From Arctopsyche grandis (lineage: Eukaryota > Arthropoda > Insecta > Trichoptera > Hydropsychidae): a stretch of 64,000 bases of DNA. A program made the position numbers and the translations under genes. The first letter of the stretch is position 1; each line of letters opens with the position of its first letter. The stretch spans positions 20,822,256 to 20,886,255 of the forward strand of contig NC_135357.1 of assembly GCF_051622035.1 (NCBI RefSeq), in the 5' to 3' direction. Positions 17,741 to 63,862 of the stretch are shown piece after piece. The notes under the pieces are model-generated. The model saw only the letters and a list, made by a program, of their open reading frames with translations. It was not told the DNA's origin and ran no database searches.

Positions 17741-17844
17741 ATATATCTGATTTTCATTGAAATGGTTCCAACGAATTGGCAACCTCTACCCATTTCTCGC
17801 AATTTTCCAGTATTCAACATCTCAAAATTTGGCATCTTAATTAC

Positions 17845-21480: not shown

Positions 21481-21499
21481 GTTTATTTTTATATATAAG

Positions 21500-24150: not shown

Positions 24151-24151
24151 C

Positions 24152-24296
<145 letters not shown>

Positions 24297-24299
24297 GGT

Positions 24300-27292: not shown

Positions 27293-27314
27293 ATAATATT
27301 ACAATACCTGTATA

Positions 27315-31379: not shown

Positions 31380-32700
31380 CTAAGAGTAGGTACACCTGGA
31401 TTTTACACACACACACCGGAAGTGGTAGTTTCCTCTTGTTCAATTGGTCTTTCACTATTTTTTTCAACCCTTTAAATATATTTGCTCTTCACGAAAAAAT
31501 TTAATTATAATCAATGTCAGTATCAATATCAATAATATCAATGTGATGGAAATAAAAAAAAAAAATCAATACATTTAATAAGCTGGAAGTGGGATTTTTT
31601 CCTCTTAGGAAAGTCAAAAATGTTGTGACCACACGATTTTTTCCACACGACACGAAGTTGAAAATTTATATTTGTACTCTTTATGTACTAACTTGGAATT
31701 GATAAGGTTTTGGTTAGAGCTCGTAAATCTAAAGAAGTATTTTTTTTAAAACAATATTTCATTATTTTATTTTGATCTCTGTAACTATTTCTATCTTCTT
31801 GATATTTTAGGTTTATAATATTTATAGCGTTATTTGAGTTCTCAGCTTTAAACGGTATAGAGGTGGTCGATAATTTTGTCTATCTGGGGTCACTCATATC
31901 TAACAACGGCGGCATTGAATTGGAAATACGGCGCCGGATTACATTAGCAAAATCGGCAATGTCACAACTAACGAAGATTTGGAAGAATAGAGCCATTACA
32001 ACTGCTGTCAAAATCCGTCTCGTGAAGAGTCTCGTTTTTTCTGTCTGCCTTTATGGTGTCGAGACGTGGACTATGAAGGCGGCGGATAGACGGAGAATCG
32101 ATGCCTTCGAGATGTGGTCCTGGAGACGGCTACTGCGCGTGCCTTGGACCGACAAACGCACGAATGTGTCTATTCTTGAAGAATTAAAAATCAAGGATAG
32201 ACTGTCAACAATATGTCTGAAACGTATATTGCAGTTCTTCGGCCACATTGCACGAAGAGGTGAGGAGAGCCTGGAGCGGTTGGTTGTGGTTGGTAGCGTC
32301 GAAGGCAGAAGAGCCAGAGGCAGATCCCCCGCACGCTGGACTGACCAAGTATCTGCAGCGACGGGCGCTTCCACGGTAGCAAGTCTTCGCCTGGCCGAAT
32401 TTATAACTGAATGGAGGCAGCTGGTTGACCGGACATCATAGTCACGATCCTCAGTGATGAGGGAACCGACAGCAATATATTGAGTAAGAAAAAATATTTG
32501 AACAAAATCCGGCAACCGCAAGTAGAGATTTTGTCTTGTGTAAGTTTCCCTACATTTTTTCACAATTTGTACCGAAAATGCTCTCATAGTCGATATGTGT
32601 GACTGTTTTTGTATGTTTCAATATCGAATTTTGTTTTTTATACTTTTTATATTCCTCAAATACAAAGATAAAGTCGTGAGTTGGTCACATCCGAATATTT
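31380..32700. repeat. Dispersed 'CCGGAAG' repeat, copy carrying a retrotransposon fragment
   Basis: 31,410-31,800 and 32,470-32,700 match successive parts of the copy at 20,490-21,480 (for example TCATTATTTTATTTTGATC and TTGAACAAAATCCGGCAACC). The reverse-transcriptase fragment at about 31,850-32,460 lies between the two halves and is absent from the other copy. Confidence 0.7.
31863..32441 (+). pseudogene. Non-LTR retrotransposon reverse-transcriptase C-terminus
   Basis: An open frame of 192 codons encodes the C-terminal part of an insect endonuclease/reverse-transcriptase polyprotein. It begins VDNFVYLGSLISNNGGIELE, the 'FVYLGS' motif after the polymerase palm. It goes on through RRLLRVPWTDKRTNVSILEE and FFGHIARRGEESLERL, and ends with the basic RGRSPARWTDQV box typical of RTE/jockey-like LINEs. 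The catalytic palm and endonuclease are absent, so it is a 5'-truncated dead copy despite the open frame. No poly-A tail or target duplication could be assigned. It lies within the dispersed repeat at 31,380-32,700. Confidence 0.85.
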
Positions 32701-39977: not shown

Positions 39978-42906
39978 TTACTTGGTATTGTCATAAATAA
40001 CCTCTTCATCTTTACTAATATTATGACTATCAACTAATTGATTTAAATCAATAGAAGTATCTTCTGCTTGCAGACTGTTGATTCTCATCGAATTTTCTGA
40101 TTGTTGGGACTGTTGAAAATCTTCAAGTTCATTCATATTAAGAGAATGTATACCAGCTGGTAGTTTAACAACTGTAACTACTGGACTTAAACTATCTGAT
40201 TCCTTGTCAACTACTGGAGACACTGATGTCGAATTTTGCCTAGAGATCTCGTTTTGAATATTTTTTACCTGGAAAACATAAGTGAGAGTAGATTAAAATT
40301 TTTAACATGAAAAATCTATGACCTTCGAATGATTATCAAACCTGCAGCGTTGGAGAATTCTTGGTGGAAGTTATGACATTGCTACTGTGAGTACGCATAT
40401 GACCTACGAGAGCTCCGCTGGAATGGTAACCACGACGGCAAACGTTACAAATGTAAGGACGTTCTCCGCTATGGATACGAGAATGAACACGCATCCCTCC
40501 CGATGTGGTAAAACCGCGACCACATTCCTTAAAATTCCAATGCAAAATTAATTCGTGTGTTTCATAAATTTTGATAAAAATATAAACATGCAGCTTGTAT
40601 TTTACCGAACAAACATAAGGCCGATTTTTATCATGCGTGCGTAAATGAACAGTTAGATCGCGAGCAAATGGAAATGAACGTGGACATCGAGAACATTTAT
40701 TTGATTTAGCTGCGGTGTTGTGTCTTCGTATAATATGCACACGTAGGTGTTCAGCACGATTAAAGCCACAATTGCAAATTGTGCACAGATGTGACCTGAA
40801 AAAATATTAAAGAATTTCGAATTTCATTAAAAAATCAGAATTTATACGTTTGAATACAATATGGATATTTACCTATCGCCGGACGAATGTGTTTTTATGT
40901 GAGTTTCTAAAGAACTTGTTAATGGAAATGATTTTTCGCAATGTGGACAAGAATATTGACAAGTATGACTCTAAAAAAGAATGAATTTTGTAGATTAATA
41001 TGCTGACATTGTTTCCATAGTTTCCATGTGCATATTTTCGTTGTTTACCTTCGGGTCTACCTCACGGGCCGGAATGTGAAATTATCGAAAACGCAAATAT
41101 CGGAAGGCAAAGACCGAAAGATTTGCGCGAGCAGGATACAACAGGAACAAGAGGAACAGACTTTTCCTCCCGTATTAATATGCGCGCGCAGAATTATGTT
41201 CAGAAGCCTGTTCCTCTTGTTCCTGTTGTATCCTGTTCGCGCAAATTAAGTGAGTATGTACCGTTTACCATGCACCCTTTTTTTTTTGATCTTTCGACTT
41301 AAAATCTTTCGATTTTCGATCTTTGCCTTCCGATAATTGCGTTTTCGGTAATTTCACATTCCGGCCCGTCACGGAGACCGGTTTACCTTCATATGTTGAT
41401 CGAGTTGTTGGAGGGTTTCGGCAAGAAAACCACATATGTTACAGGCAGATATGAAATGATCTTGTGATGAACCTACATCCTTGGCGTCTATTTGTCTGTG
41501 TTGGGCGTGCATATGTTTATTTAGGTTGTAAGGAGCATTAAACGTTTTACCACAAACAGAACACATAAGTCGATCCTCTGGAATACAAAATTATAATACC
41601 ATATATGTACACACTTGAACTTAGCCCCTTCCATCAGTGGCGTAACTACTATGACGCGGGAGTATGCAGTGCATGCGAGCCCTTAGGGCCGGAAGGATCT
41701 CCAAATATTAATAAATACATTTAAAAAAATAAACTTATAATTAAAAAATAAAGGAAAATCGATTTCACTAAATGAAAACAGTCAAAAGTAAGTATAAAAA
41801 AATTCTGACTTGACGAACTTGCAATATTAACAAAGAAGAAGTTCAAAAAATGTCTTTGAAAGATGTGTTTTTACATATAGGCTAGGAAGGACATTTAAGA
41901 TTTGGAAGTTTATTTATTTAATTGAAAAAAATAGGGGGCCCCTTTTTTAACTTTTGCATGCCGGTCAAATTTTTCTAGTTACGCCACTGTTTTCCACTGA
42001 TTTTTTAAATTCGTTAAAAAAATTATTGTTCAGACTACTTCATTTCTAAAATACTAGTGTAGCAATAAAATAAATATATCTCAATATCGGTTTAATATTC
42101 AGTTCCGTAAACGGAATTCTGTTTCAGTTCCGGATCTCAATTATATTTTCAGTTCTGGATCCGGGTTCTTGTTTCAGTTCCGATTAGCCATGTTTAAGCG
42201 GTTTTTATTACAAATACCATACGAAGCCGGGTAAAACAACTAGTATGATATAAAAAAAAGTGTGCAACTATACGTAAATAAATAATATTAATAATTTCGT
42301 AAGGTATGATATATTTCAAATCTGGAAGATGTAGTGCTAAAAGACATTTCTTGCATTCCCGAGTATGTATTTAATTCCATTATTTTTCTTGTGTTTTGTA
42401 CATGTGTACTTTGCACAATCTTGCATTTTTTTTCTATTTGTGGTATGTCTTGGAAAATAGCTCCAAGTTTTGCATTATTATAACTTCGATTATAACATGG
42501 AAGGGTGATACTGAGCAAAATCTGTTCTGCAATATCCATACGAAACTAAGAATTTTCTTTTTTCTTTTCATTGGATAATTTTGAATACAATATATAAGAA
42601 ATAAACATAGCCATTTCAAAAATGTAAAAGAAAAAAATTTCTATATATTTTTAAAAAATTCCTCATTACTGGAAAACATTCCAATGCCTGATCTACTCCT
42701 CCCATGCCGTGGTAATAATCGATGATACATTTTGGTTTGTAAATATTATTTTCTTCAGTTCCCACATTTTTGATTCTTCTTTTTTAGTTTATCTATGTAC
42801 GTAGTAACAATAGATGAAGTTTTGTGATAATGCAAAAATTCGAACTCGAGATTTTGACTGATTCGAACTCGAATCGATCACTGATCACGTTTTCATGATC
42901 TAGAAA

Positions 42907-42953
<47 letters not shown>

Positions 42954-45777
42954 TGTGTATTTTGGGGATATTTTGAACACCGTTAGTCCTATCGAACTGA
43001 AACTTGGTATTGAGAACTTAAAGTCGCCATTAAAACTAATAATAATCAAGTATCTGATTGCTATTTTTAATTTTGACCATAAATATTAACAAAAATGATT
43101 GATACCTGAATGTATTTTGAAATGCACTTTGAGTTCTGTAACAGTAATAAATTTTTTTTCGCAATTCTTGCATGAATATGGGCGAATATCTAAATGTCGA
43201 CGTATATGAACATTTAGTCTGTAAAAAAGTAAATAAACGTGAAAAATAAATAAAAAACGTGACAAAATATATGTAAAATATATACAGAATTAAATTAACC
43301 TATCTTTGGTAACAAAGGCTCGTCCACATTTTTGACACAAAAAAGGTAAATCTCCCGTGTGTGTTCTCTCGTGATTTTGTAAATGATGTAAAAGGTTAAA
43401 ACCTGCAGAAATAATTGAACATTACATAATTTAAATTGTTATTTTATATATTGAAGCGCTGTATGAATAAATGAAAATATACCTTTGTGGCAGTGTTTAC
43501 ACTGAAATCGTTTGGTCAATTTGTGCTGTATCATGTGTTGCCGAAGATTTCGAGAGTGTTTGAATGTCTTGTGACAAAAGCGACACTCGTGTGTACCACT
43601 AGAATGATTTACATTAGTATGTACTATCAATTCATGCTCTGTAGCGAAAGTCCATCTGCATCTACCGAACTAATATAAAAAAAACGTTACTTTTATTTCA
43701 ATCACAAAAGATATATTATTTTAATAATGAGGTAATATAAATACTGTATATTACCTCATTATCATTATTATTAACAATGTATGTATATGTATACTTGGCA
43801 ATAATATGGTTTGTCGGGATCATGAGTAGCTTCATGCCGCTGTAAATCATTCAATTTTCTGAAGCATTTTCCACATATGCTGCATTTGTGCTTCAATTTT
43901 TTGATTTCTACATCGAAATGTTTTCATACAATTATTTATAGTAAAAACAAAATTAAAATCATGTTTTAATATATTATATACTCTACCATTTATTTTTACT
44001 TTATCTATGAGATCTTTTATTGGGTTGGTTTCTATGGAATCATTATTGATGAATTGTTGAATATTTGATAATTCTTCATCCTGAACCATATCTATAATTT
44101 CATCTAGAATAATAAAAAATAAAATGCTTTTAATTAAAATCAAAATTGAATAAATGTATAATATTTCAATGTGGTCCAACCTTGATTTTGTTGCATTTCA
44201 ATATCTAAATATGCAGGTGAATTTTTTTCTATTGCTGTTGAATTGGGCGATTCTTTGACTTTCATGAAATGCTTATCAATCAGATGTGACTGAAAATTGT
44301 ATAATACATTGTATAATTGTTGCTATTGTTAAACCAATTATTATAATAATATGTAAATAACCTGGAGAGATTCTACATCAATAAAAAGCTGTCGACATGA
44401 ATAACAAAATAAGTCATTCGATTTTTCATCAATTTTTTTTTCAATATTTTCTTTGGTATGTAACTTCTGTTTTTCCTGATCTACCAAACATATAAAGTAA
44501 ATAAAATACTACTAATTATAATACCACAAATATTAATATCTTATCCATTTGTATATAAATATATAAATACATATAAAACCTAGTTCATTTGTAAAATTTT
44601 GATTGCCATCATCGGTAATCATATTTTCCAACTTGTTAAGAGACACTTGAACATCACCGGGCGAATGTCTTGCCATGTGAAACCGTAAGGTACGGATATC
44701 GCACCATCGGCTTCCACAATAGCCGCATTGAAATCTTTCTAATTCATTGTGCATCTGTCTGATGTGCGGATTTATGTGTCTAAAATTAATTTATGGATTG
44801 ATTTATATGTATATGTATGGAATATCAGTTGATAAATTAATAATCTTATACCGTTGATGAAGAAAAGTTATGCTGCAATAACGACACTGCAACTTATCAT
44901 TGATGTGTGATTCGGTATGTTTCGAATTATGCTTGTCGAGTTCATTCCAACTAAGGAAATGAAGATCACATTTCCGACATCCAAATACTAAAGAGGTTGA
45001 TATTCGTCTATTTTTCTATAAATACCAACAAAAACATTGATTTTCATAAAAAAAAATTGTAAAGTAATAATTAAATCATTAACTGACTTTCTTTATACTA
45101 TTTATACATTGTATTTTTAAATCTTTATCCTTTAATTTTAATTTTAAAACATCACAGGCAGAACTTCTTCCAAGTTTTTCAGTTGCAAAATTAAAATCAC
45201 TAGAAACGATGGAATCATCTGAAAACGATGGAATCAATAAAAACTTAATTTTCTCAAGATGTACTTTATTGTGATTCTAAAAAAATCTTAAATAACTCAC
45301 CGCCATAATTTACATACAATGAAGCATTTTTATTTTCATCGTCCATTTTATGTGCGATATTGGAATCGACATCAGAAAGTGGATCTAGTAGAAATTGACG
45401 TAAGCTAATGTCCGCACTTTCACATTGGCTCTTGAAAGAATATAATTTAGTTAACTGAGTTGCACAAGACTCACAAAGTTGAGCAGGTAAACCATCATTT
45501 TCAGTAATCTAAAATGTATATATTTTATATATGTATATTATCTCAAATAGTATAGTTTAAATATCTCACAAAGGCCAAAGGTTTGGTCGCCCGTCCTACA
45601 TATAATTAAATGACAAACATTGACATAACATACCACAACTTTAGTGCAAGACATGATCATTTCATAAAATCGTGGTGAAAGGCCTTCTTCAGTAATAAAA
45701 AGCCCTTTCATTTTAGAACTCTCTTTTAAGCAAATTCTACAAATTTTATCTAAACTCAATTTAACACTGCTATTCAT
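39978..45777 (-). CDS. ZAD C2H2 zinc-finger protein, 17 exons, 887 aa
   Basis: Coding exons, 5' to 3': 45,634-45,777; 45,301-45,508; 45,088-45,218; 44,852-45,015; 44,580-44,779; 44,362-44,480; 44,181-44,289; 43,987-44,103; 43,795-43,907; 43,483-43,669; 43,300-43,402; 43,106-43,218; 41,387-41,577; 40,873-40,970; 40,606-40,795; 40,342-40,527; 39,978-40,268. They sum to 2,664 nt and stay in frame. The exon 3 donor is GTCAGT, a weaker site. Residues 13-63 hold a ZAD domain (KICRICL ... LCESC), the insect zinc-binding dimerisation module. Then come 17 C2H2 fingers in clusters, e.g. [25 protein letters not shown], [25 protein letters not shown] and a last pair with the HSGERPY linker. The tail is acidic and Gln/Ser-rich. 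Likely a nuclear DNA-binding regulator; target unknown. A MITE sits on the donor of exon 13, and introns carry other transposons. Confidence 0.93.
41053..41380. mobile_element. Fold-back MITE inserted on a splice donor
   Basis: The two arms, from GGGCCGGAATGTGAAATTA to TAATTTCACATTCCGGCCC, are long inverted copies, with CAGGAACAAGAGGAACAG and its complement near the centre. The flanks GTTTACCTTC (41,043-41,052 and 41,381-41,390) are a perfect 10-bp direct duplication. On the minus strand this is GAAGGTAAAC, the exon 13/intron junction of the zinc-finger gene. A second copy is at 58,947-59,324 with a 9-bp duplication. A 9-10-bp duplication fits a Mutator-like (MULE) family. Confidence 0.9.
41635..41989. 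mobile_element. hAT-type MITE in a zinc-finger gene intron
   Basis: The terminal repeats CAGTGGCGTAACTA and TAGTTACGCCACTG are perfect inverted copies and typical of hAT. The flanks are only loosely similar, so the insertion is older. A fragment of the same family is at 39,060-39,170. Confidence 0.8.
42100..42243 (+). mobile_element. Helitron-like 3' end with minisatellite, in intron 12
   Basis: CAGTTCCG-type minisatellite units at 42,105-42,185 lead into CCATGTTTAAGCGG and ACGAAGCCGGGTAAAACAAC and CTAG before T, the Helitron terminus of the 15.7- and 55.7-kb family. Confidence 0.65.
42790..43020 (-). repeat. Dispersed repeat with (GT)n, in intron 12
   Basis: Reverse-orientation copy of the family at 28,045 and 35,570 (ATAGATGAAGTTTTGTGATA ... 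ACCGTTAGTCCTATCGAAC), with a GT microsatellite at 42,908-42,953. A Cys-Val frame here is an artefact. Confidence 0.75.
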
Positions 45778-45917
45778 TTTTTTTTCGCTGTTTATTCAAC
45801 GTAGCAAAACAAGTATCTCCTGCTACCATTTCACTGAAGGTTATGTGTCAAAATGGCTATATATAGTGTTGCCACAAATATATAGTGCTGCCACATTAAA
45901 AAATTAATGCTTTCATT

Positions 45918-51433: not shown

Positions 51434-51567
51434 CTATTGCTTAGAATATCCCGTAAAACCGCCATTAAATATAATACATCCATTATTAGACTTTATAATA
51501 TATGTAAATGGATGACTTGCATAAAATTCAGGCATTATATTAAATGATTCAGCTACAACAATTACTT
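51434..51567 (-). CDS. Serpin B alternative exon (12th in transcription order), predicted P1 Glu
   Basis: Acceptor TGTTTACAG, then 44 codons ending TAG directly followed by GTATTA, a donor. Encoded: split residue E, then VIVVAESFNIMPEFY, the serpin strand motif ASHPFTYIIK, and IIFNGG near the end. Taking the split residue as P7, P1-P1' is Glu-Ser. The Ser in 'ASHPF' replaces the usual Asp/Asn. This is the most distal intact exon of the cassette. Confidence 0.85.
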
Positions 51568-51774
51568 CTGTAAACAAAAATAGACGATTCGTATTACATC
51601 GAAATAATTTGTTTTAAATGCACGCTAGAAATGTATAAGTAATACTTAAAATTAATACCTTATTAGTTATAGTTGCCGTTAAAAGAATGCAATTATATTC
51701 ATAATGCATGCAAAGTAAAATTTAAAAATGTATATAAGGATTCTATAATAAAATACCTGAACAGAAAAATATTA

Positions 51775-51905
51775 TCAATTGATTTGATTAATCGATCCCA
51801 TGAACAATACCATATCGTTATTTGATCTTAGCAAAAAATAAAATGGATGATCAGCTGTCAATATTATTTTAAGCAGACGTCCACTTCTTCCCCTGATTTG
51901 CATTA
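51775..51905 (-). CDS. Serpin B alternative exon (11th), predicted P1 Arg
   Basis: Acceptor AACATTTTTACAG; stop TGA; donor CAG|GTATTT at 51,757. Split residue V, then MQIRGRSGRLLKIIL, TADHPFYFLLR and VLFMGS. P1-P1' is Arg-Ser with Arg also at P3, predicting inhibition of trypsin-like or clip-domain proteases of immune cascades. Target is inference from P1 only. Confidence 0.88.
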
Positions 51906-51998
51906 CTGTAAAAATGTTGAAAAAAAAACACATATTTTAGCCACTGTACCCACATGTATTGCGCATCATACTACATACATATAAAAGCTGTCTGTTGG

Positions 51999-52740
51999 CA
52001 GTGGTGTCACCCTAATGGTTTCCATGGGTTTTTGGAAATCCGTTCTTAGAAATCTAAAAATTCATATAATTTTTGCCAAAAATTATACAAATCTTGAAAA
52101 TTGTTTTTGATGGTTACTACTTCAAAAAGGTCGTAGTATATTACATAGCAGGTAAAGAGAAACTATCTTTTTTTCCGTTATGCACAAGCAAAAGTAACTG
52201 TTTAAATTGTCTGCAGTCTACACTCGGAACTATCCTTCCTAGTAATAGTCAAAGAGAAGCTTGGTAAAAAATAGATCCAGATTTACACCAAATAGTAATT
52301 AATATAATTGATAAATTATATATTATCTAAATATTTGAAATTAATCAATTCATTAATTTATTTCAAATATTAATATTTTTGAGTATTTTATAGAAGTATA
52401 TTTGTATATTTTTATGCTTCTAAAGGTTATTTTTTATTATATATGGTATGTTTTTATTTAATTCATTTTTTTCATTTAACTTTTTGAGATTTTAAAATTT
52501 CAAGCTCTTTTAAGGAAGAATGCGAACACTGCGAACTTGAAGAGTGTCAAAAATTTGAATTAGAAACGTAAAAATATCAACTTACACTAATCAATTCAAA
52601 TTTAACAGCTACTGGATTTATACAAATAATCATTTGAAATATTATAAATTCAAGTTATATGTAAGAAGAAATTTAATCCAAGTCACTATTACGTAAAAAA
52701 ATTGGAAACCCGTTGTTCCAAAATTGGGGTGACACCCCTG
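51999..52740 (+). mobile_element. hAT transposon, 742 bp, inside the serpin B cassette
   Basis: Ends CAGTGGTGTCACCC and GGGTGACACCCCTG are inverted repeats. The 8-bp target duplication TCTGTTGG is perfect (51,991-51,998; 52,741-52,748). A plus-strand frame at 52,073-52,267 (KLSFFPLCTSKSNCLNC) looks like a zinc-finger part of a hAT transposase; further Cys-rich codons lie near 52,515. Deleted internally. Confidence 0.88.
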
Positions 52741-53085
52741 TCTGTTGGTCTATTTATCTATATATTCCTGAAAGACAATAGTTACATATGTATATCGTCT
52801 TGATACATATGCAGTGAGAAATTAAAAAAATAATTTCTCGGATAAATTTAAAATTACGAGATTCGAAGAAACCATTTAATAATGCATAGAAATAAAAAGT
52901 AAAATTTTATGAATGAATGAATTTTTGAGAAAAAAGTTAAAAATATTTTCGAAAGGTACTGAAGATCCAAAAACGTTGGAAGTTTCAAAATTCACTAATT
53001 TTAATTTCATGAATTTGAATTTTTAAAAGCAAGTACCAAATATTTTTCTTAACCACCCGCTAAATGTCAACGAAGAAAACTAATC

Positions 53086-53183
53086 TTATATGGTTTTTAG
53101 TTCACCTCCAGTTGCATTTACAAATACAAGTAATAAAGAATTTAGGTCTGTGAGACCTATTCCATAAATTAAACTTAACCCGC
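53086..53183 (-). pseudogene. Probable decayed alternative serpin exon
   Basis: Acceptor TTTATTTTCAG is followed, in the phase used by all cassette exons, by 31 codons and TAA. The product GLSLIYGIGLTDLNSLLLVF then VNATGGEL keeps the hydrophobic pattern of the C-terminal strands but has lost the H-P-F motif and the F-x-G end. It is about 12 residues shorter than intact exons. It could be chance. Confidence 0.4.
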
Positions 53184-53207
53184 CTGAAAATAAAATTTAT
53201 ATAACAA

Positions 53208-53482
53208 CTAGCTGAACCCGGCATGCGTTGCAATACCACAATAGCGTATGCAATTCCCGTTCCCATTTGTCGGAAAAACGCAGGCAGCGAACACATTTGA
53301 AATTATTGCGTTGCAATGACTCATTCCCGTTTTTTTTTCACAGTAATCGTCCCGGATATGCATACAACAAATCCTGAAAGTTCCATCGTAATCGGTTCGG
53401 TGGTTTAGGAGCCTGTTCGAGACACACAGAAAGACCGACAGACATATAGACATTCATTTTTATATATATGTACATATATAGA
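53208..53482 (-). mobile_element. Non-autonomous Helitron (275 bp)
   Basis: On the minus strand it begins TCTATATATGTACATATATA after A and ends GCATGCCGGGTTCAGCTAG before T, the A|TC...CTRR|T rule. Inner motifs CCACCGAACCGATTACGATG and GGATTTGTTGTATGCAT are shared with 14,099-14,455. No coding capacity. Confidence 0.82.
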
Positions 53483-54460
53483 TTATTGACAGTGAAATCA
53501 TTTTGGAATGAGTACCTATGTACATATGTACATATATATTGAATAGTTTCATTTAAGGCTTTGGTGGTCTCTATTTTTTTACTAATTGTGTATACCTTTG
53601 TGTAAATTCACTCTTGGTAACAAATGTTAGATATTTGTAAACAAAATCAATTTTCAAATAAATTTAACCAAAATTTTTTTTTAATCCATTTTTCCAGATG
53701 GTGCTGGTCAATTTTTTTTATCATTTTTTAAATAAAAAAATACCAGATGTGTTAAATTATTTATCAAGTAATAAACAGGTTTTTAATTAAAATCTAACCA
53801 TTTTTAAGTGGGCTCATTCATTTTATTAATATTGACTTTCAAGATAAAAATTATTAATATAATTGATAAAAATATTAATATCCTTGCTAAAAATAAATAT
53901 AATATGTACAACAAAAACAATTATTGGCGTAGAACCAATTGAAAATTCTACTGAAAAAAATTTTTAAAGAGCTGCTTCATTGTCAGATACATGCATCCTG
54001 CTCGCGCACACGTAAGTGAGGTTGTGCGATGAAAACGGGGAGATTTCCACGACATGCCACTGGTACATACATACATATATACTATTTTTGCCTTTTTGCG
54101 AACTCTAAATCTGTTACCATATATTGTGAAGGAAATTTAGAATTATAATAATTATTTTGATAGGGTATTATTGTAATTTTTTACATATAATTCCAACTCA
54201 TTTGTTTGCGGAAAAAATAAAGAGTTATGATACTGAAATAAAATAATTATAAAATGAAAATGATCAATTAAATAAAGTATTACTGTTAAATTAATTAATA
54301 TTAAAATAAATTGGTTTGAATTTTATTTATATCGTCAGATAAGTAGAGGACCTCGTTTGTATAAGAAGATTTAGTTGGTTCTTAGAAAAATCTAGTATTC
54401 ATACAAAGTGTTTCAATCGACATTAGTAATTAAAACTGGGGAATTATAAGTAAATAAAAA
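53483..54460. other. Serpin B intron, no exon seen
   Basis: AT-rich; no H-P-F exon pattern on the minus strand. The short GC-richer patch near 53,990-54,060 (CCTGCTCGCGCACACGTAAG) may be a transposon fragment. Confidence 0.35.
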
Positions 54461-54549
54461 TTAAATGTTATAAACTATAGTCACAGATTTCGATTTAAGC
54501 AATGAAAATAAACCAAACTTCATAGCACCAGACTTCACCACAAAACCGC
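54461..54549 (-). pseudogene. Decayed alternative serpin exon lacking the H-P-F motif
   Basis: Acceptor TCATTATTAG, then the cassette phase and 28 codons to TAA: split residue G, then GFVVKSGAMKFGLFSLLKSK and SVTIVYNI. It aligns with the neighbouring exon at 54,698 (FVV-x-x-x-x-x-F ... F-I-L-K-S-K), but the A-D-H-P-F block is deleted and the FIG end is lost. The open frame suggests the decay is recent. Confidence 0.6.
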
Positions 54550-54697
54550 CTAATAATGAATTTGTAAAATGATTATGGTTTTATAATATAACTTTAATAT
54601 CTTGATCAATTTAAAATAGAAAAAGCAATGCACTAAATTATACCAATAATTTTTACTCCAGTTCATGTACACACCTGTACAGAAAATGCCTATGCAA

Positions 54698-54828
54698 TTA
54701 TTTTCCATGAAAAGATCCTATGAATAAAATTGAATTAGTTTTTGACTTTAAAATGAAAAAGAAAGGATGGTCTGCATTAACTCTCTTTATAGTAACCATA
54801 CGGAACCTCTTAGCTATGACAACAAAAC
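54698..54828 (-). CDS. Serpin B alternative exon (10th), predicted P1 Lys
   Basis: Acceptor TATATAATTGCAG; stop TAA; donor-like CAG|GTGTGT at 54,675. Split residue G, then FVVIAKRFRMVTIKRV, NADHPFFFILK, SILFIGS. P1-P1' is Lys-Arg, so a trypsin-like target is expected. The loop is strongly basic (K, R, R, K, R). Confidence 0.9.
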
Positions 54829-55661
54829 CTGCAATTATATATAAACACACCGCATTCAGTAATATATATATAATATGATCATAGATCAAAAATTGAATAG
54901 TAAAAGAAAGAAGGTTAATAAATAATAATTAGCCCATGTTTTTAAATAAAAATTATGAGTTCAGCTAGTTTTTGCAAATTCCCTTAGAACTCGAAACTCA
55001 GGCTATTGGAATCCTGACGTCCTGTTTTTATTATTATTAGAATTTTTATCATTGTTTTTTACACATTGTCATTCAACAGGTGATTTCGGATAAATAATTA
55101 ATGTGCAAATTAAAAAGAATTTTCATTGCTTGACAAACAATGACTGGAAAACGATCATTTCGAACATTCTGTACCTTCATGAAATAATTTAATTTTCTCG
55201 TAGATCAGTGATGATGGGTACATTATGTATACATATATCGAAAATGAATGTAATTTTCATTGCATCCGAATGTTTTATAGTTCGTTAAATATTTCAATAT
55301 TTCAAAGTTCATGAAAAATATTTGATGTATAGAAATTTTCACTTCATAGGAAAAATAAAAATAAATGTATCTTTTAAAAACAGACGACATAGTAAACTAA
55401 ATAAAATTTGAAATAATAATCTGAACACTTTTATTTTTACCTAATTTTCTATAATCCTAAAACCCTAAGTAATAGTTGATGTAATAATAAGTTAATGCAA
55501 TTCTACCTATAATGCATACAAAAGGCAATTTAAATAATAATGTAATTATAATTTAATAATTTAAAATGCCAGAAAAATAATATACAAAAAAATTAATATA
55601 TCAAAATAAAATATTACTGTGAATAAATGTTAGAAATATTTTCTTGTTCTTTTGAAACATA

Positions 55662-55876
55662 TCTAGTATATAATTTTGAAAGAGACTTTATACGTAAGGT
55701 TTAAAGGTTTGTGTGGGTGCATCGAAAACAAATCAAAGTTTCTATGACGACGATATCGATATCGTTTAATATTTTTTTTTTCGATTCAACCAAATTAATG
55801 TTTATTGTTAGATTGTTTTGCCATGTTTAAGTTGTTTATATTACAAATACCGAGCGAAGCAGGGTGAAACCACTAG
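55662..55876 (+). mobile_element. Non-autonomous Helitron (215 bp) in a serpin B intron
   Basis: Starts TCTAGTATATAATTTTGAAA after A and ends CGAAGCAGGGTGAAACCAC TAG before T. Nearly the same element as 15,652-15,883. It ends 32 bp from the stop side of the next exon. Confidence 0.85.
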
Positions 55877-55907
55877 TATAACATATTTTAGTTCATACTG
55901 GTAATAC

Positions 55908-56047
55908 CTATTCAACAAATCCTCTCCAAGCTCCTACAAATATAACTCTACAGTCTTTTTTATATGCGAGAATGAAATAAAATGGATGATCAGCTCGAAA
56001 AGACCGTTTGCCATACCGCGTACCACCTAGTGCATTAATTTGGAAAG
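55908..56047 (-). CDS. Serpin B alternative exon (9th), predicted P1 Leu
   Basis: Acceptor TTTGTCTTTACAG; the stop TAG abuts the donor GTATTA. Split residue A, then FQINALGGTRYGKRSF, RADHPFYFIL, VIFVGAW. P1-P1' is Leu-Gly by count, predicting an elastase- or chymotrypsin-like target. A dibasic GKR-S further on could be an alternative cleavage site if the loop is read differently. Confidence 0.88.
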
Positions 56048-56759
56048 CTGTAAAGACAAAATATATTTAAAAAAGGCATTAATGATAATCCGAAAAATCA
56101 AGTGTTTAGTTTAATTAAGGAAAACACAGTGTTTTTTTTTATATTTCAATGGTATAAAAAAAATAAGGATACGTAAGATATTCTAAATGTATGTATAGTT
56201 CTAACATAAACATAAACCAGGGGTCGGCAGAAACGGTTCATGTCATAAAAGAATTAGATAAAATACATGATAGATGTTCATCGAATATGCTGCCTTTCCC
56301 AAAAGTATATATGAATAAAACCATATTTAATGAAAAAAATTAAGAGAAATATAAAAAAAGACGAGACTTAAATCACTTTAAAATTCATAAATTAAACGAA
56401 TTCATCCAATTTGAGCAAAACCCGCCAGTTCGTTTTCAAGTTCAAATTAACAAATATTTCAAGAATATCTTGTGTGATAGCATAGGGTAAAATATGACAA
56501 CCATAACATACATATGTATGTACATATGCATATGTTTAGAGCTAATTGAACTAACAATTTAATTTACTTGACTGTGTTAAAATGAAATATTCAGTCAACG
56601 AAAAATTTCTTTTGGGTTATTTTGAAACAAAGAGTTATGTAACTATAACTTTAAAATATGATAAAAAAAAATCAATCCAAACACCTTAGTAGAAAAACTC
56701 CCCATCCTGTTATATAAAATAAAATATATATTTAATAACCTTCATATTTTAAAATAAAG

Positions 56760-56947
56760 TTAAAAAAACCATTTAAAAATATTATATATGATTTTTTTAA
56801 TATATGATTTTTGATTATATCTCTCTCGTCTATTATTCAACATCAGTCCTGTAAACATAATTCTTTCTTCCGAATTTTTTATCATGAAGATAAATGGATG
56901 ATTTGCCTCAAAAATAGGGGGAGCCGAAAAGAAATCGATCTCAATGC
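56760..56947 (-). CDS. Serpin B alternative exon (8th), predicted P1 Phe, long tail
   Basis: Acceptor AACTAACTACAG; 62 codons to TAA. Split residue G, then IEIDFFSAPPIFE, ANHPFIFMIK, IMFTGLM. P1-P1' is Phe-Ser, predicting a chymotrypsin-like target. After FTG the frame goes on for about 26 residues rich in Lys/Arg/Asn/Tyr, where other exons stop after 3-10. The donor after the stop (AAG|GTTATT) is weak. Confidence 0.85.
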
Positions 56948-57384
56948 CTGTAGTTAGTTTTAGAAATATTTTCAATATTAAAAATTTTCATACGGACAAA
57001 TATACACTTCATAAATTGATATACATATTTGATAATTAATAAATATAAATACGTCTACGTCTTATATTAACAAATACTAAAGCATAACTTACAAATTGTC
57101 TCTTAAACATGGCGCTTATTGAATTATATCAAATAAAATTACTAAATGAATAAAACTATTCCTTCTGATTCATCTATGAATTTTTTAATTTATATATCAT
57201 TCAGATAATATACATTAAAAACCAATCACCACACACAAAACCATGTCAGTAGATGTAAATTAGTAAATACCAATGAGTTTGTGTTAATATTTTTAAATGT
57301 TGATGAACAGGAAATAAGCAATAAAAACAGAATTAAATAAACATGTTTTATTCTTCAATGAAAATAGTATGTACAGCATAAAAA

Positions 57385-57521
57385 CTATTTATTTCCCAAG
57401 AATTTTCCCACGAATGCAATGTTATTTTCTTGATGAAGCATGTAATAAAATGGTCGATTCATTTCGAAGATTATATTTTTGAATGGAATCATTGGAGCAG
57501 CACAACATGCAATCATAAATC
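57385..57521 (-). CDS. Serpin B alternative exon (7th), predicted P1 Cys, altered strand motif
   Basis: Acceptor TTGGATTTTCCTAG; 45 codons to TAG. Split residue G, then FMIACCAAPMIPFKNI, and EMNRPFYYMLH where others have ADHPF/ANHPF, then AFVGKF. P1-P1' is Cys-Ala with a second Cys at P2. An AATAAA follows about 35 nt after the stop; no strong donor was seen, so this exon might use its own polyadenylation site. Confidence 0.85.
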
Positions 57522-58748
57522 CTAGGAAAATCCAAAATGATACAAATTAACCACTAATTTTGTAAATACTACAGAAATCAATCATAAAAAAAATCACAAT
57601 ATTATTCAAAACTCGAGAGTTGTTCTTTTAAAAGATTATTTGGCAAATATCACATAATCATGAATTTAGTAAATTTTACTTGCTACATAGTTATAAATTC
57701 AAGATTACCACTATGCACCGGTATTTTAGTTTAGTAAATCATTTTTATCACAATACGTATGTAGCCCCAAAATATTATTGTATTGACTCCACTATATAAG
57801 ATAATCGTATTTTTTGAATCTCTTGAAATCTTCTTTAAAAAAATGCGATAAGAAGATCACATCTTATGATGTAAAAATCATGTAAAACTTGGCATAAAAA
57901 AATATTGGATTTTTTGCATCCCCTTTAAATATTGGGGCATCATCAGCAAAAAATCATGAACATTTATTAAAATATGCAGTATAATATTTTGTACATATGA
58001 TTAATAAAACATTTTTTTTATTTTATCCTGTCAACAATTTTAAAAAAATACTTTGGGATTGTTAGTATCTAAAGCTATTTTATTACATAAATTACCTACG
58101 AGTAATTTAAGATTTTTAATTAAAAAAATATATATTTTTCTGTTTAAAATATGTACATCATATGTACATATATACGTGTAGTAAATTTAATTTGATGTCT
58201 AAATCTAACAACCACCGTGTGTGCAAGAACTTTGATAGCTGGTAAAATTATAACAATCCAAAAATTATAGTAAAAAAATAAAACAAAACAAAAACAACTA
58301 CATCATTTGTAACCAGAAATTATAAAAATTACTGAAAGATTTTCAATCTAAGTAGTTCTATATGAAAGTTGCGATTGTCTTCATGCAGTGTTAATTAAAT
58401 TAGGCAATAATTAAATATATCCATAAAAATATATTATAATAATATTGGCGGCTGGCAATTGTTGGGTTTTCCATTAATTACATTAATAAATTATTTCAAT
58501 AGTGGATGCTCAAAAAATCAAGAAAATTATAATGTAATAATATGATAAAATATTAATAAAAACACAAAAGTTTTATTTTACGTATGTTTAAAACATGACA
58601 TCAATTTATGAAATGGATTAACGCTTGGACAATTTTACCTGCTGCCATTATATTATAGATATGTATATGTATATACAAATAAATACATGAAAATGTATAC
58701 CAAATAACCAAACATGCACATATTTTTGTAAATTACCTATAAGTGATT

Positions 58749-58885
58749 TTAAAATAATTTAACATTTCCAATAAACAAAGATTTATTTTCCTGAGTTTTT
58801 AAAATATATATAAATGGATGGTTAACAGTAAACTGGATTGGGGGTCTAACATTAGTAAACATTGTAAATCCTATGACTCCAATAG
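58749..58885 (-). CDS. Serpin B alternative exon (6th), predicted P1 Phe
   Basis: Acceptor AAAATTTTTGCAG; stop TAA; donor TAG|GTAATT at 58,737. Split residue A, then IGVIGFTMFTNVRP, PIQFTVNHPFIYILK, SLFIGN. P1-P1' is Phe-Thr. It is a duplicate of the exon at 60,766, almost identical after the loop but divergent within it. A fold-back MITE lies 61 bp upstream of the acceptor. Confidence 0.9.
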
Positions 58886-58946
58886 CTGCAAAAATTTTGA
58901 AAGTAACAAATATTATGAATAAAAAAAAATACAATACAACTTATAT

Positions 58947-59324
58947 GGGTCTACCTCTCGGGCCGGAATGTGAAATTACCGAAAACGCAAATATCGGAAG
59001 GCAAAGATCGAAAATCGAAAGATCAAAAAAAAGGGTGCATGGTAAACGGTACATACTCACTTAATTTGCGCGAGCAGGATACAACAGGAACAAGAGGAAC
59101 AGGCTTTTCCTCCCGTATTAATGTGCGCACGCAGAATACGGGAGGAAAAGCCTGTTCCTCTTGTTCCTGTTGTATCCTGCTCGCGCAAATTAAGTGAGTA
59201 TGTACCGTTTACCATGCACCCTTTTTTTTTTGATCTTTCGAGTTATGATCTTTCGATTTTCGATCTTTGCCTTCCGATATTTGCGTTTTCGGTAATTTCA
59301 CATTCCGGCCCGTCACGGAGACCG
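58947..59324. mobile_element. Fold-back MITE next to a serpin exon acceptor
   Basis: Long inverted arms from GGGTCTACCTCTCGGGCCGG to CATTCCGGCCCGTCACGGAG, same family as 41,053-41,380. The 9-bp duplication AACTTATAT is perfect (58,938-58,946; 59,325-59,333). The centre carries GAATACGGGAGGAAAAGCC, inverted copies of which abut each other. Confidence 0.92.
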
Positions 59325-59885
59325 AACTTATATACGTATACTTATATAGAATATTTTTTACCGTTCGAAATCTTTAAAAATAATATTTTGTGTGTATTTG
59401 TGTGTGCGTAAGTTAGTAAATATTATACTCTGTACAGTGAATCTGTATTTGCTAATAAAGTGATATTTTCACTAATTTAAATATATTATATCTGGCAGAG
59501 TTATTTATGCAGCTATTCAACCAATGTAAGAAGCAGACATTAAGATTCTCACGAATGTATATTTGTATTCACTTCATTAGTCGTCAGTAGATAATTTAAA
59601 CATATTGCTATTAAAATACGTTCTATAATATTCTCGATAATTATTACAAAACTTATTATTGCATCAATTCATAATTACGTTAAAGGTAAAGAGATTCTGT
59701 TATGTAATTAAAATTTTATTCATTAAATAAAAAAGCAGAAACTTATAGATTTGTGAAGACAACAAGAATTGTATTCATATCGATAATTTTTAGTCATAAA
59801 AAAGTACATAAATAGTCACAGCATTACCGTAGTCCACTATCACCTATGTAAACTCTTGCTTCAATTTAAATATTGCACTAAAATT

Positions 59886-60022
59886 TCAAAACCGTTTCAT
59901 TTGTCCAGAAAACACAACAAAGTCATCATTGCTTTTGAGATAAAATGTAAAAGGATGATCCATAATAAACAACTTTGGTTGGACGATTTTAAATGATCTT
60001 GAAGATCCCCCAGATCCCATAC
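59886..60022 (-). CDS. Serpin B alternative exon (5th), predicted P1 Ser
   Basis: Acceptor TATTCCAATTCATAG; stop TGA; donor-like TAG|GTGATA at 59,844. Split residue G, then MGSGGSSRSFKIVQP, FIMDHPFTFYLK, VVFSGQ. P1-P1' is Ser-Ser by count; Arg two residues on could be the true P1 if the loop is longer. Duplicate of 61,446-61,582. Confidence 0.9.
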
Positions 60023-60524
60023 CTATGAATTGGAATATAATGATCAAATTTGATTATTTGAAAAAATTTGGCGTCATATTAATGAACACGGTGAGATTGG
60101 TGAATGTGCCCAAACTATATGCTTAATGTAATTTTGATAGTTGATAAAATTATAACAATTCAAAAAGTATAAAAAGAGAAGAAGAAAGTTATAAAAACTA
60201 CTGAAAGATTTTCAATGTAAGTAGTTGTATATGAAAGGTGCGATTATCTTCATGCAGTATTAATAAAATTAGGCAAAAATATTGTATGATAACATTGGCG
60301 GCTGGCAATTTTTGGGTTTTTCATTAGTTAAATTAATATATTATTTAAATAATGGTTGTTCAAAAAATCATGAAAATTTTAATTGTTAATAAAAACACAA
60401 CAGTTTTATTTTACATACATACACATGCTAGAAACATGACATCGAAAATAAAAACAACTAAATGGACTAATAGGACCATTAATACCTGCTCCCATTATAC
60501 TACATATATATGCATGTATATGAG

Positions 60525-60720
60525 GGTTCGGTGATTATTTCGCACACGTCACTAGAATCTCGATCACGGAATATCTGGCACGCAAAAATTCCATCCATCG
60601 AGAGTTACCCACGTGAACAAATACTCTAACGAGAATTCGAGTGCCAGATATTCCGTATTCGCAATTTTTGTGGCAACGATTATCTTATGCGTGATCGCAA
60701 TGTGCGAAATAGTCCGTTAA
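60525..60720. mobile_element. Fold-back MITE (type 2)
   Basis: Inverted arms from GGTTCGGTGATTATTTCGCA to TGTGCGAAATAGTCCGTTAA, with CACGGAATATCTGGCACGC and GTGCCAGATATTCCGTATTC inside. Same family as the outer element at 45,918-46,271. It lies 34 bp downstream of the donor of the next exon. Confidence 0.8.
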
Positions 60721-60765
60721 TTAAACAAACATGCAAATAATTTTGTAAATTACCTATAAGAGATT

Positions 60766-60902
60766 TTAAAATAATTTAAAATTTCCAATAAATAAAGATT
60801 TATTTTCCTTGGTTTTTAAAATATATATAAATGGATGGTTTGCAGTAAATTGGATTGGGCGTCTAATATAAGTACTCAATGAATATTCCACGACTTGAAT
60901 AG
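60766..60902 (-). CDS. Serpin B alternative exon (4th), predicted P1 Tyr
   Basis: Acceptor CATAATTTTTGTAG; stop TAA; donor TAG|GTAATT at 60,754. Split residue A, then IQVVEYSLSTYIRR, PIQFTANHPFIYILK, SLFIGN. P1-P1' is Tyr-Ser, predicting a chymotrypsin-like target. Tandem duplicate of 58,749-58,885. Confidence 0.9.
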
Positions 60903-61445
60903 CTACAAAAATTATGTAAATAACAAAATTATAATATTGTACATATGTACATATGTATTGTATATTCTACATATTTAAATATTTGTACAATAATTTTACC
61001 ATTCGAAATCTTTAAAAAATCATATTGTGTGTGATGTATGTGTATTTGCTAATACAGTTACATTTTCATTAGTGTAAATATAAGTTATGGTTGAGTTAAG
61101 TTAAGTCAAAATACCAAAACGACAATTAATAGTATTTTTATACTCAAAGAATGCAACGACCAATTCATGAAAACGGCAATAGGCTTCCACCATTCATGAA
61201 ATAAGTATTATTCTTAACAAGCTCATGTAATGAGGAATTTCACAAATTGGGTATAACATACGGTAAAGGTTAAGAGATTCAGGATTAGAATTTCATTCAC
61301 TAAAAAAGCATAGTTTTCTTTTTAATTTGTGAAGACAATAAGAATTATATTTACATAAATAATTTTTAAAGTGCCATAAAACAGTCACAGCATTGCCATA
61401 AGCACCTAAGTTCTTGCTTCAATTTTAAATATTACAATAAAATTT

Positions 61446-61582
61446 TCAAAACCGTTTAATTTGTCCAGAAAACACAACAATGTCATCATTGGTTTTGAGA
61501 TAAAATGCGAAAGGATGGTCCATAATAAATAACGTTGGTTGGACTAATCTAAATGATCTAGAAGATCCCTCAAATCCCACAC
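61446..61582 (-). CDS. Serpin B alternative exon (3rd), predicted P1 Ser
   Basis: Acceptor TATTCTAATTCATAG; stop TGA; donor-like TAG|GTGCTT at 61,406. Split residue G, then VGFEGSSRSFRLVQP, FIMDHPFAFYLK, VVFSGQ. It differs from its duplicate at 59,886 at P6, P4 and P3 but keeps P1 Ser and the following SRSF. Confidence 0.9.
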
Positions 61583-61974
61583 CTATGAATTAGAATATAA
61601 TGACAAAATTTGATTTGAAAAAAAAAATTTGGAGTTCTTTGAAAAGCGATAGTAGTAAACATGATAACATAACAACAACGTAACATTTGTGAATTTGCTC
61701 AAACCATATCTGTATGTACTTGATTTACAAATAAATTAAATCGCTTTTCAAAAAACTAAGTAGATAATTTAAAAAAATGCTAAACATAACAAAAATATTC
61801 TATCAATATTTTTGAAACATTCGATTGAGTGATGAAAAATAGTTTCAAAATCATGACTAATTATACCACAACGAAAGCAAATGCACCAAAAATAAAATTA
61901 GAGCAAAATAATGATGATTTAGTGAATTAATACAATAAAAGCGATTCTATAATAAAATCCAGTCACGAACTTGA

Positions 61975-62155
61975 AAATTGCAGCCACGAAAAAACCGGTA
62001 AACGAAAAATCTACTATTTCATTAGAACATTTTTAAACGCAGGAAGTCATAATATTTTGAATTTCGTGTGCGCAATTTTCCATTTTCGCAATTTTCGGCG
62101 ACCGGTTCGTTCGTGTCACCAATGTTCGTGGCTGGTTCTATCCGTTCACCAATAA
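61975..62155. mobile_element. Probable decayed fold-back MITE
   Basis: GCAGCCACGAAAAAACCGGT near the left end and CCGGTTCGTTCGTG ... TTCGTGGCTGGTTC near the right end are imperfect inverted copies. No clear target duplication. Confidence 0.45.
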
Positions 62156-62680
62156 AAGCACAACTATTCATGATATGTAAATACATAGCAATACTTCATA
62201 TGCCACACATCATGTACAAAAATAATAAATGAAATATTAAATAATGAACCCATTAATTAAAAGTGTTTTCGTTAATCAAGAACGAAAGTTGGAGGTTCTA
62301 AGGCGATTAGATACCGCTGTAGTTTCAAATTGAGTTTTTAAGTCATATGGCATATGCAGTGTTGTTTATGTATGGTGTATCAATAGTGCAAATGCCATAC
62401 TTAATGCCATGCTAATCAAATTTTTGAATTGATTATAAATCTGAGCAAAATATTGCGAAAGAATCATTGTGGTATGACAAACAAAATATTTTTTGTAGAA
62501 AAATTGAATGCTATTAAAAGTTTTACTTCCATATTGAACCATTATAAAAGTGGTCAATTTGCTATATTGCACATACACTAATGATACAATCAGTTTTGAA
62601 AATTTTATTTTATATTTATGTATTTTTAAAAAGGGATACACAGATATATATGTAAATTTAGGTACACATTTTTTTTATTA

Positions 62681-62808
62681 TTACCATGTTTGAAGTTTTC
62701 CCATAAATATTATATCACCGTTATTGCTGTTCTTCAAAAGAAATACAAATGAATGATTTGCATTGAACGTTCTACTTGGTCGAATTGCATCAAGAGTAAT
62801 AAAAAGTC
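62681..62808 (-). CDS. Serpin B alternative exon (2nd), predicted P1 Asp
   Basis: Acceptor GGTTTATCGCAG; stop TAA. Split residue G, then LFITLDAIRPSRTF, NANHSFVFLLK, IIFMGK. P1-P1' is Asp-Ala (P4-P1 I-T-L-D). The strand motif is H-S-F instead of H-P-F. The donor is unclear: ATG|GTAATA overlaps the stop codon, or a weak GTGTAC lies 20 nt further. Confidence 0.87.
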
Positions 62809-63737
62809 CTGCGATAAACCCTCAATTAATAAATACTTTGAACAACACACTTTCTATACTCCCTGGTTGAAAAAACTCAAAAATACTAACCAATATGAAC
62901 CGACTGATCACAAATATGATATTGAAATTTTTTATACGATCAGGTTTTCAAGATATGAGCAAGTTATAATTTTCTCAATATTTAATGTTGTGAGTGTTTA
63001 AAATTAATATTTTAGTCAATATAGAATTGTTTTTTCTTTTAATTTTCATACGTGTATTATAATTTTAAAATTCTCATCATATTCATGGTCAACGGGTGTG
63101 AATTAGTTTAGATTTTTAGGTTTTAGCAGAGGAGTTGAAGAATCACTTTTGAACAGTGTTATTCTATTATTTAAATTGTAAAATAAATAGTCGAGTGTTA
63201 AAATAAAACATTTTTTTATATAATATCTTATGTAGCTGTGAATCAAATATCAGAAGCAAGTTTGTATGTATGTATGAATTGTTCTGTCTGTACACATCGT
63301 TATAGATAATTAAACTTATGTTAGTGATTCTGATGAAAATGGTATGTATGTTTATGTATTTGAATTATTTGATATTTGCCATGAAAATTTTCCAATCAGA
63401 AATAAAATAAATGGTAAATCTTTATATAAAGAAAAAAAGTGACATTTCATTAAAAAATAAATACATGTGTGTATATAAATTAAAATATTCTCCTCTCCAA
63501 AAACTAATAACTGGGTAACGGTGCAATTGATTGAATTCTATTAGATCTTTTTCAAAACATGTTTTATTAATATTTATATATATTTTATATTACATAATAT
63601 AATTAATAATGAATACAAAATTATTTTGAATAATATTTATCATTAATGTGATTGATTAATTACAAATTTTAATACTGACAATAAATTATTACCTCCTGTG
63701 TTTTCAGTAGATACATACATATGTATATTATTATAAT

Positions 63738-63862
63738 TTATTTTATCTCGGCTAATTTGCCAACGAACAATGGCTTGTGGTCTGCAACGATTACAAAGTA
63801 GAAAGGATGATCTGCACAGAAATTCATTTGAATTGGCATGCAAAATGCCATCATCACCATTC
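63738..63862 (-). CDS. Serpin B alternative exon (1st in transcription order), predicted P1 Phe
   Basis: Acceptor TTTGTTTATTAG; stop TAA; donor GAG|GTAATA at 63,693. Split residue G, then MVMMAFCMPIQMNF, CADHPFYFVIV, PLFVGK. P1-P1' is Phe-Cys; the loop is unusually rich in Met. This is the copy nearest the constant exons, which lie beyond the window. Confidence 0.9.

What the first reader, a model, noticed from the sequence alone, without database searches (positions are those of the whole stretch)
51434..63862. Twelve-exon cassette for switching the serpin reactive-centre loop
Twelve minus-strand exons share one splice phase, encode P6 to the C-terminus, and carry diverse predicted P1 residues: F, D, S, Y, S, F, C, F, L, K, R, E in transcription order. 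This is seen directly. Mutually exclusive splicing is known for Manduca sexta serpin-1 and some other insect serpins. That this locus works the same way is inference, since the constant exons are outside the window.
Basis: partly seen in the sequence, partly recalled or inferred. Interest (0 to 1): 0.9.

Follow-up and report, generated by a model that had tools for sequence, protein, structure and literature searches.

The report
Caddisfly serpin with twelve swappable tips
A caddisfly gene for a protease inhibitor carries a row of at least twelve alternative last coding exons, each giving the protein a different bait loop, an arrangement already known from moths, wasps and other insects.

Summary
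Twelve minus-strand exons (51434-63862) encode serpin reactive-centre loops. A profile of 153 outside serpin tails finds these twelve and one other exon, and nothing else above background. All twelve read in phase 1 and end in their own stop. The window is from the caddisfly Arctopsyche grandis.

P0002, 'alaserpin-like isoform X8' (27 clustered sequences), lies on a contig of the same length. Its tail is 62% identical to exon 1 but not in the window. So twelve is probably a minimum, with the constant exons to the right.

New here: 10 of 12 exons have AG|GT within 45 bases after the stop (background 8-10%). They are thus most likely internal exons spliced to shared 3' untranslated sequence. Exons 2 and 7 instead have an early AATAAA.

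This is a new member of a known kind: 192 of 731 genes in one insect serpin clade splice their C-terminus (PMC10513286). I saw no transcripts and no DNA past 64000.

The parts
63738..63862 (-). Exon 1 (P1 F by the N-register); AG|GT 45 nt after the stop, so the exon would end at 63693
   Evidence: (46.2 bits); 62% identical to the tail of P0002
62681..62808 (-). Exon 2 (P1 D); no AG|GT within 150 nt after the stop, AATAAA at +2
   Evidence: (32.1 bits)
61446..61582 (-). Exon 3 (P1 S); AG|GT at +40; block partner of exon 5
   Evidence: (27.5 bits)
60766..60902 (-). Exon 4 (P1 Y); AG|GT at +12; block partner of exon 6
   Evidence: (37.9 bits)
59886..60022 (-). Exon 5 (P1 S); AG|GT at +42
   Evidence: (23.3 bits)
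58749..58885 (-). Exon 6 (P1 F); AG|GT at +12
   Evidence: (35.5 bits)
57385..57521 (-). Exon 7 (P1 C); no AG|GT within 150 nt after the stop, AATAAA at +33
   Evidence: (40.9 bits)
56760..56947 (-). Exon 8 (P1 F), with a longer C-terminal tail; AG|GT at +20
   Evidence: (29.5 bits)
55908..56047 (-). Exon 9 (P1 L); stop TAG directly followed by GT
   Evidence: (31.0 bits)
54698..54828 (-). Exon 10 (P1 K); AG|GT at +23
   Evidence: (40.0 bits)
51775..51905 (-). Exon 11 (P1 R); AG|GT at +18
   Evidence: (41.3 bits)
51434..51567 (-). Exon 12 (P1 E); stop TAG directly followed by GT
   Evidence: (28.6 bits)
58228..61629 (-). Tandem duplication of a two-exon block: exons 3+4 and exons 5+6 with flanking intron sequence
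   Evidence: direct repeat families D1, D2, D4-D8, spacing 1560-2017, identity 76-91%
33032..35090 (-). Not part of the cassette gene: complete paralogous serpin, 9 coding exons, 450 aa, with one loop exon of its own (33032-33333) after a phase-1 hinge exon (33457-33601)
   Evidence: exon structure; 100% identical over the 450 aa to P0001 'alaserpin-like [Arctopsyche grandis]'
40336..45795 (-). Separate gene between the cassette and the second serpin: ZAD (zf-AD) C2H2 zinc-finger protein; limits approximate, from ORFs
   Evidence: ORFs; zf-AD and zf-C2H2 matches

Best explanation
The twelve exons are the alternative C-terminal exons of one Arctopsyche grandis serpin gene of the alaserpin / Manduca serpin-1 kind, transcribed right to left. 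Its constant exons lie beyond 64000 and end in a hinge with a split G. Each mature mRNA joins that hinge to one cassette exon, which supplies the loop from P7/P6 to the C-terminus and so sets which protease is trapped. Most exons are internal: a 5' splice site 0-45 bases after the stop joins them to a shared downstream 3' untranslated exon. Shown: the exons, their shared phase, the intact frames, the AG|GT excess after the stops, and the block duplication of exons 3-4. Inferred: the link to the gene of P0002, one exon per mRNA, the shared 3' exon, and the protease specificities.
For: 13 profile hits in the window: the twelve exons plus the 33-kb serpin's loop exon, far above the reversed control. 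Twelve of twelve are open, read in phase 1 and have their own stop. P0002 'isoform X8', a cluster of 27 sequences on a contig of the same length as P0001's, has a constant region that matches in the window only the 33-kb paralogue, G at the junction, and a tail 62% identical to exon 1, E 7e-11. AG|GT within 48 nt after the stop in 10 of 12 exons against 8-10% background, binomial p 6e-10 to 9e-9, or 8 of 10 without the duplicated exons 5 and 6, p 8e-8 to 5e-7; among 4-mers present in at least 6 of 12 it is the most enriched. The one-loop serpin at 33 kb lacks it. In pair 4/6 changes that alter the protein pile up in the loop (13.5 against 2; Fisher p 0.0015), as expected if the loops are what differs.
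Against: No transcript and no constant exon of this gene was seen as DNA. The other members of the P0002 cluster were not seen, so it is not shown that any of them uses a window exon. Pair 3/5 shows no loop excess (Fisher p 0.52). The 48-nt stretch was chosen after looking, though 15 to 150 nt all give p at or below 1.4e-4 for 12 exons and 1.4e-3 for 10. A full donor score with recalled base frequencies gives weaker support: for 12 exons p 0.002 at 60 nt, 0.014 at 45, 0.039 at 100, not significant at 20 and 150; for 10 exons 0.001 to 0.09. The shared 3' exon was not located. Exons 2 and 7 do not fit it.
Confidence: 0.88

Rival explanations
1. Alternative last exons: each cassette exon is terminal and ends at its own poly(A) site, so the choice is made by competing cleavage and not by exon exclusion.
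For: Exons 2 and 7, the two without AG|GT, have AATAAA at +2 and +33. AATAAA or ATTAAA within 200 nt in 9 of 12, expected 5.7, p 0.049.
Against: At 60, 100, 150 and 300 nt poly(A) signals are not in significant excess (p 0.11-0.47), while AG|GT is, in 10 of 12. It may hold for exons 2 and 7 only.
Confidence: 0.12
2. The cassette serves the complete serpin at 33-35 kb by trans-splicing or back-splicing.
For: That gene has a phase-1 hinge compatible with the cassette exons and lies on the same strand.
Against: The cassette lies upstream of its first exon, with a ZAD zinc-finger gene between; the gene has its own loop exon, and its database record P0001 uses that one. Another A. grandis serpin, P0002, has a tail 62% identical to exon 1.
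Confidence: 0.02
3. A dead array: relics of loop exons that are no longer used.
For: No expression data; the loops are very different from each other (median pairwise identity 29%); a tail search with exon 11 found no relative.
Against: 12 of 12 frames intact with acceptors and 10 of 12 with AG|GT after the stop; strand residues in pair 4/6 conserved while the loop changed.
Confidence: 0.05

Closest known systems
Manduca sexta serpin-1 (alaserpin)
   Same: Tandem copies of one exon for the loop and C-terminus; 14 copies of exon 9 (PMC5691223, passages seen). The Manduca serpin-1 structures 1sek and 1k9o are the two best PDB matches of the window's other serpin. That a shared exon 10 follows exon 9 there is recalled, not seen.
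   Different: Another order (Trichoptera). In a quick tree the A. grandis serpins group with one other caddisfly and one unnamed row, not with a single lepidopteran gene; Manduca alaserpin itself was not in that tree. Two exons here lack an AG|GT near the stop.
Pteromalus puparum PpSerpin-1
   [quoted passage not shown] 21 C-terminal forms (PMC10513286, Results part 1 of 3).
   [quoted passage not shown] nothing about role is known here.
Multi-isoform serpin clusters of other insects in the protein collection
   Same: Clusters named as isoforms: Harmonia axyridis 42 members, Onthophagus taurus 30, Tribolium castaneum 23, Bombyx mori 22; A. grandis P0002 has 27.
   Different: Cluster members are not a count of loop exons; N-terminal variants may be among them.

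Membership tests
Insect serpins with alternative C-terminal (reactive-loop) exons | Several tandem exons, each encoding the loop from P7/P6 to the C-terminus and a stop | tested here: met
   12 of 12
Insect serpins with alternative C-terminal (reactive-loop) exons | Splice point one base after the hinge (position +1; 161 of 192 such genes, PMC10513286) | tested here: met
   Acceptor side: best-scoring acceptor phase 1 in 11 of 12, tie in exon 1. Donor side seen only as protein: G at the junction in P0002
Insect serpins with alternative C-terminal (reactive-loop) exons | One constant serpin region upstream on the same strand | tested here: inconclusive
   Not in the window. P0002, contig of the same length, tail 62% identical to exon 1, is the candidate; its constant region matches only the 33-kb paralogue in the window
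Insect serpins with alternative C-terminal (reactive-loop) exons | One exon per transcript | not testable with these tools
   No RNA data. P0002 is named isoform X8 and stands for 27 sequences, whose tails were not seen
Insect serpins with alternative C-terminal (reactive-loop) exons | Exons are internal, with a donor after the stop (Manduca serpin-1 layout, recalled) | tested here: met
   AG|GT within 45 nt in 10 of 12 exons; exons 2 and 7 not
Dscam1-type mutually exclusive splicing by docking and selector RNA pairing | One docking sequence complementary to a site in each inter-exon intron | tested here: inconclusive
   Below exon 12 the best 14-mer exceeds all six shuffles (97.1 against 48.0-56.7) but is a TACATATGTA-type simple repeat, 26 copies in the window, pairing poorly with introns 5, 7, 9 and 11; the 138 nt above exon 1 do not exceed shuffles (21.1 against 17.7-43.9). 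The rest of that intron is outside the window
Orthologue of lepidopteran serpin-1 | Pairs with that gene in a tree of the constant region | tested here: inconclusive
   P0002 falls in a group of 12 rows (10 A. grandis, Limnephilus, one unnamed; SH-aLRT 94) in a quick midpoint-rooted tree of 53 chosen rows; Manduca alaserpin not included

The most novel reading that the evidence does not exclude
A mixed cassette: ten exons are mutually exclusive internal exons whose donors sit within 45 bases of the stop, while exons 2 and 7 end at their own poly(A) sites. The choice of loop would then be made by two different machineries in one array, with perhaps more than 20 loops in all, and the short distance from stop to exon junction may be a limit that keeps the mRNAs from decay.
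Probability: 0.2. Interest if true: 0.45.

Novelty: new member of a known kind. Interest (0 to 1): 0.3.

Why it matters
It places the serpin loop-switching array in a caddisfly, the sister order of the moths in which it was described early, and gives its DNA anatomy: shared phase, donors just after the stops, and a block duplication in which one loop pair changed fast while its strand residues did not. That is useful for asking how such arrays grow, how one exon is chosen and what each loop targets, but the principle is long known.

Tried and rejected
Constant exons inside the window: a tblastn of P0002 hit only the 33-kb paralogue and loop exons 1 and 7 (E <= 1). More or decayed loop exons: none above background on either strand. 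Docking and selector sequences: the best candidate below exon 12 beats the shuffles but is a common simple repeat. Rfam: no match in the window at gathering thresholds. Relatives of the exon 11 tail: one candidate, none at E <= 0.001; that search sees only cluster representatives sharing exact words. Poly(A) signals as the general exon end: no significant excess except p 0.049 at 200 nt. In one search the loop lengths and C-register letters of exons 3, 5 and 9 were wrong (the pattern matched RSF); replace them; the dN/dS split used HPF and is not affected. Literature: 'Arctopsyche grandis' + genome gave 3 papers and 'caddisfl' + serpin 12, seen as listings with the start of each abstract; none of those titles or abstract starts describes this array. 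The loop-splicing paper PMC10513286 has no hit for Trichoptera or caddis in its main text. Other listings seen only.
Full report
WHAT IS THERE. Twelve minus-strand stretches between 51434 and 63862 encode the end of a serpin: a loop, then the HPF...F.G strands, then a stop. To avoid circularity I built a profile from 153 serpin tails not named as A. grandis (of 192 proteins at hand) and searched all six frames: 13 hits, the twelve plus the last exon of another serpin at 33 kb, from 23.3 to 46.2 bits; the next window hit had 8.5 bits and the best hit in the reversed window 8.6. No further or decayed copy stands out. Pfam's general serpin model matched 9 of the 12 short tails at E <= 0.01, none reaching its cut-off; exons 3, 5 and 12 had no match.

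SPLICE PHASE. Scoring every in-frame AG upstream of each loop, the best was phase 1 in 11 of 12; exon 1 had a tie between phases, settled by the alignment to P0002. The score is crude: several acceptors of the 33-kb serpin score low with it.

P1 LETTERS. F,D,S,Y,S,F,C,F,L,K,R,E is reproduced 12 of 12 as the sixth residue after the split codon; counting back from HPF gives M,I,L,I,I,V,P,F,R,M,R,F. The loop is 16-22 residues long up to the HPF-type motif, split codon included. The first count lands on Y and K in the aligned Manduca serpin-1 structures, which I recall as their P1 residues, so I prefer it; the individual assignments stay predictions.

SOURCE AND GENE. The window's other serpin is 100% identical to 'alaserpin-like [Arctopsyche grandis]' P0001, on a 38,054,753-base contig, so the window is from that caddisfly (Trichoptera, Hydropsychidae). 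P0002, 'alaserpin-like isoform X8', is a cluster of 27 sequences whose contig has the same length. Its constant region matches in the window only the 33-kb paralogue, while its tail is 62% identical to exon 1 over 37 residues (E 7e-11) and is itself not in the window. The simplest reading is that P0002 is a product of the cassette gene through a thirteenth exon to the right. I did not see the other members, and I could not read past 64000: the genome search was busy six times.

A complete serpin gene lies at 33032-35090, nine coding exons, with its own loop exon after a phase-1 hinge. In transcription order the cassette comes first, then a ZAD C2H2 zinc-finger gene at about 40.3-45.8 kb, then this serpin. 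It is therefore a neighbour. In a quick tree of 53 chosen constant regions it groups with three other A. grandis serpins (SH-aLRT 95), inside a group of 12 rows (94) that also holds P0002, a Limnephilus serpin and one unnamed row.

HOW THE EXONS END. After the stop, 10 of 12 exons have AG|GT at 0, 0, 12, 12, 18, 20, 23, 40, 42 and 45 bases. Random stretches of the same region have it in 8-10%, binomial p 6e-10 to 9e-9; without the duplicated exons 5 and 6, 8 of 10, p 8e-8 to 5e-7. The stretch length was chosen after looking, but lengths from 15 to 150 all give p at or below 1.4e-4 for 12 exons. Among 4-mers present in at least 6 of 12 stretches AGGT is by far the most enriched. No further exon gains one between 48 and 150 bases, and the one-loop serpin has none within 48. 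A full donor score with recalled base frequencies points the same way more weakly (12 exons: p 0.002 at 60 nt, not significant at 20 and 150 nt; 10 exons: p 0.001 to 0.09). Poly(A) signals are not in significant excess except marginally at 200 nt. So most exons are probably internal and run on to a shared 3' untranslated exon, which I did not locate. Exons 2 and 7 lack AG|GT and have AATAAA at +2 and +33; with two cases this is only suggestive. Since each exon has its own stop, an mRNA that joined two of them would still encode the first one only.

HISTORY. Exons 3 and 4 and their introns were duplicated together to give 5 and 6 (direct repeats of 76-91% identity, spacing 1560-2017). In pair 4/6 the changes that alter the protein fall in the loop, 13.5 against 2 in the strands (Fisher p 0.0015 on rounded counts; dN 0.33 and dS 0.18 in the loop, 0.04 and 0.18 after it); pair 3/5 shows no such contrast (6.5 against 4, p 0.52). 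The numbers are small; one of two pairs supports fast loop change.

EXCLUSION MECHANISM. I looked for a docking sequence complementary to all eleven inter-exon introns, in 5.4 kb below exon 12 and in the 138 bases above exon 1. Below exon 12 the best 14-mer exceeds all six shuffles (97.1 against 48.0-56.7), but it is a TACATATGTA-type repeat that occurs 26 times in the window and pairs poorly with introns 5, 7, 9 and 11; above exon 1 nothing exceeds the shuffles. Inconclusive; the natural place, the intron between the hinge and the first loop exon, is mostly outside.

KNOWN OR NEW. Loop switching by tandem exons is established: 14 copies of exon 9 in Manduca serpin-1 (PMC5691223, passages); 21 C-terminal forms in Pteromalus, and C-terminal splicing in 192 of 731 genes of one insect clade, 161 of the 192 at position +1 (PMC10513286, Results part 1 of 3). 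Multi-isoform clusters of 20-42 members are listed for several beetles and moths. The finding is real and well read, and is a new member of a known kind.

Noticed in passing
33032-33240 (minus): The one-loop serpin at 33 kb carries an unusual basic C-terminal extension of about 65 residues with three KQGD motifs after the last strand.
   Followed up: no
58948-59323: Nested inverted repeat (95-nt arms 100% complementary, outer 81-nt arms 94%) in the intron between exons 5 and 6; ORFs at 41.0-41.3 kb read alike, so it is probably a short mobile element.
   Followed up: no
31803-32441 (plus): ORF that reads like the end of a non-LTR reverse transcriptase (recalled resemblance); Pfam gave only a weak DUF6451 match below its cut-off.
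   Followed up: partly
27148-27800 and 24043-24379: Long simple repeats: a minisatellite read as SVCLFVCL and a microsatellite read as YIYIYI.
   Followed up: no
17675-18121 and 21215-21846: Related repeats that read as FRIRIPFSVPDPD in several frames, one on the plus and one on the minus strand.
   Followed up: no
P0010 (contig of the same length), P0008, P0009: Other A. grandis serpins with long C-terminal extensions; the tree suggests a lineage-specific expansion.
   Followed up: partly
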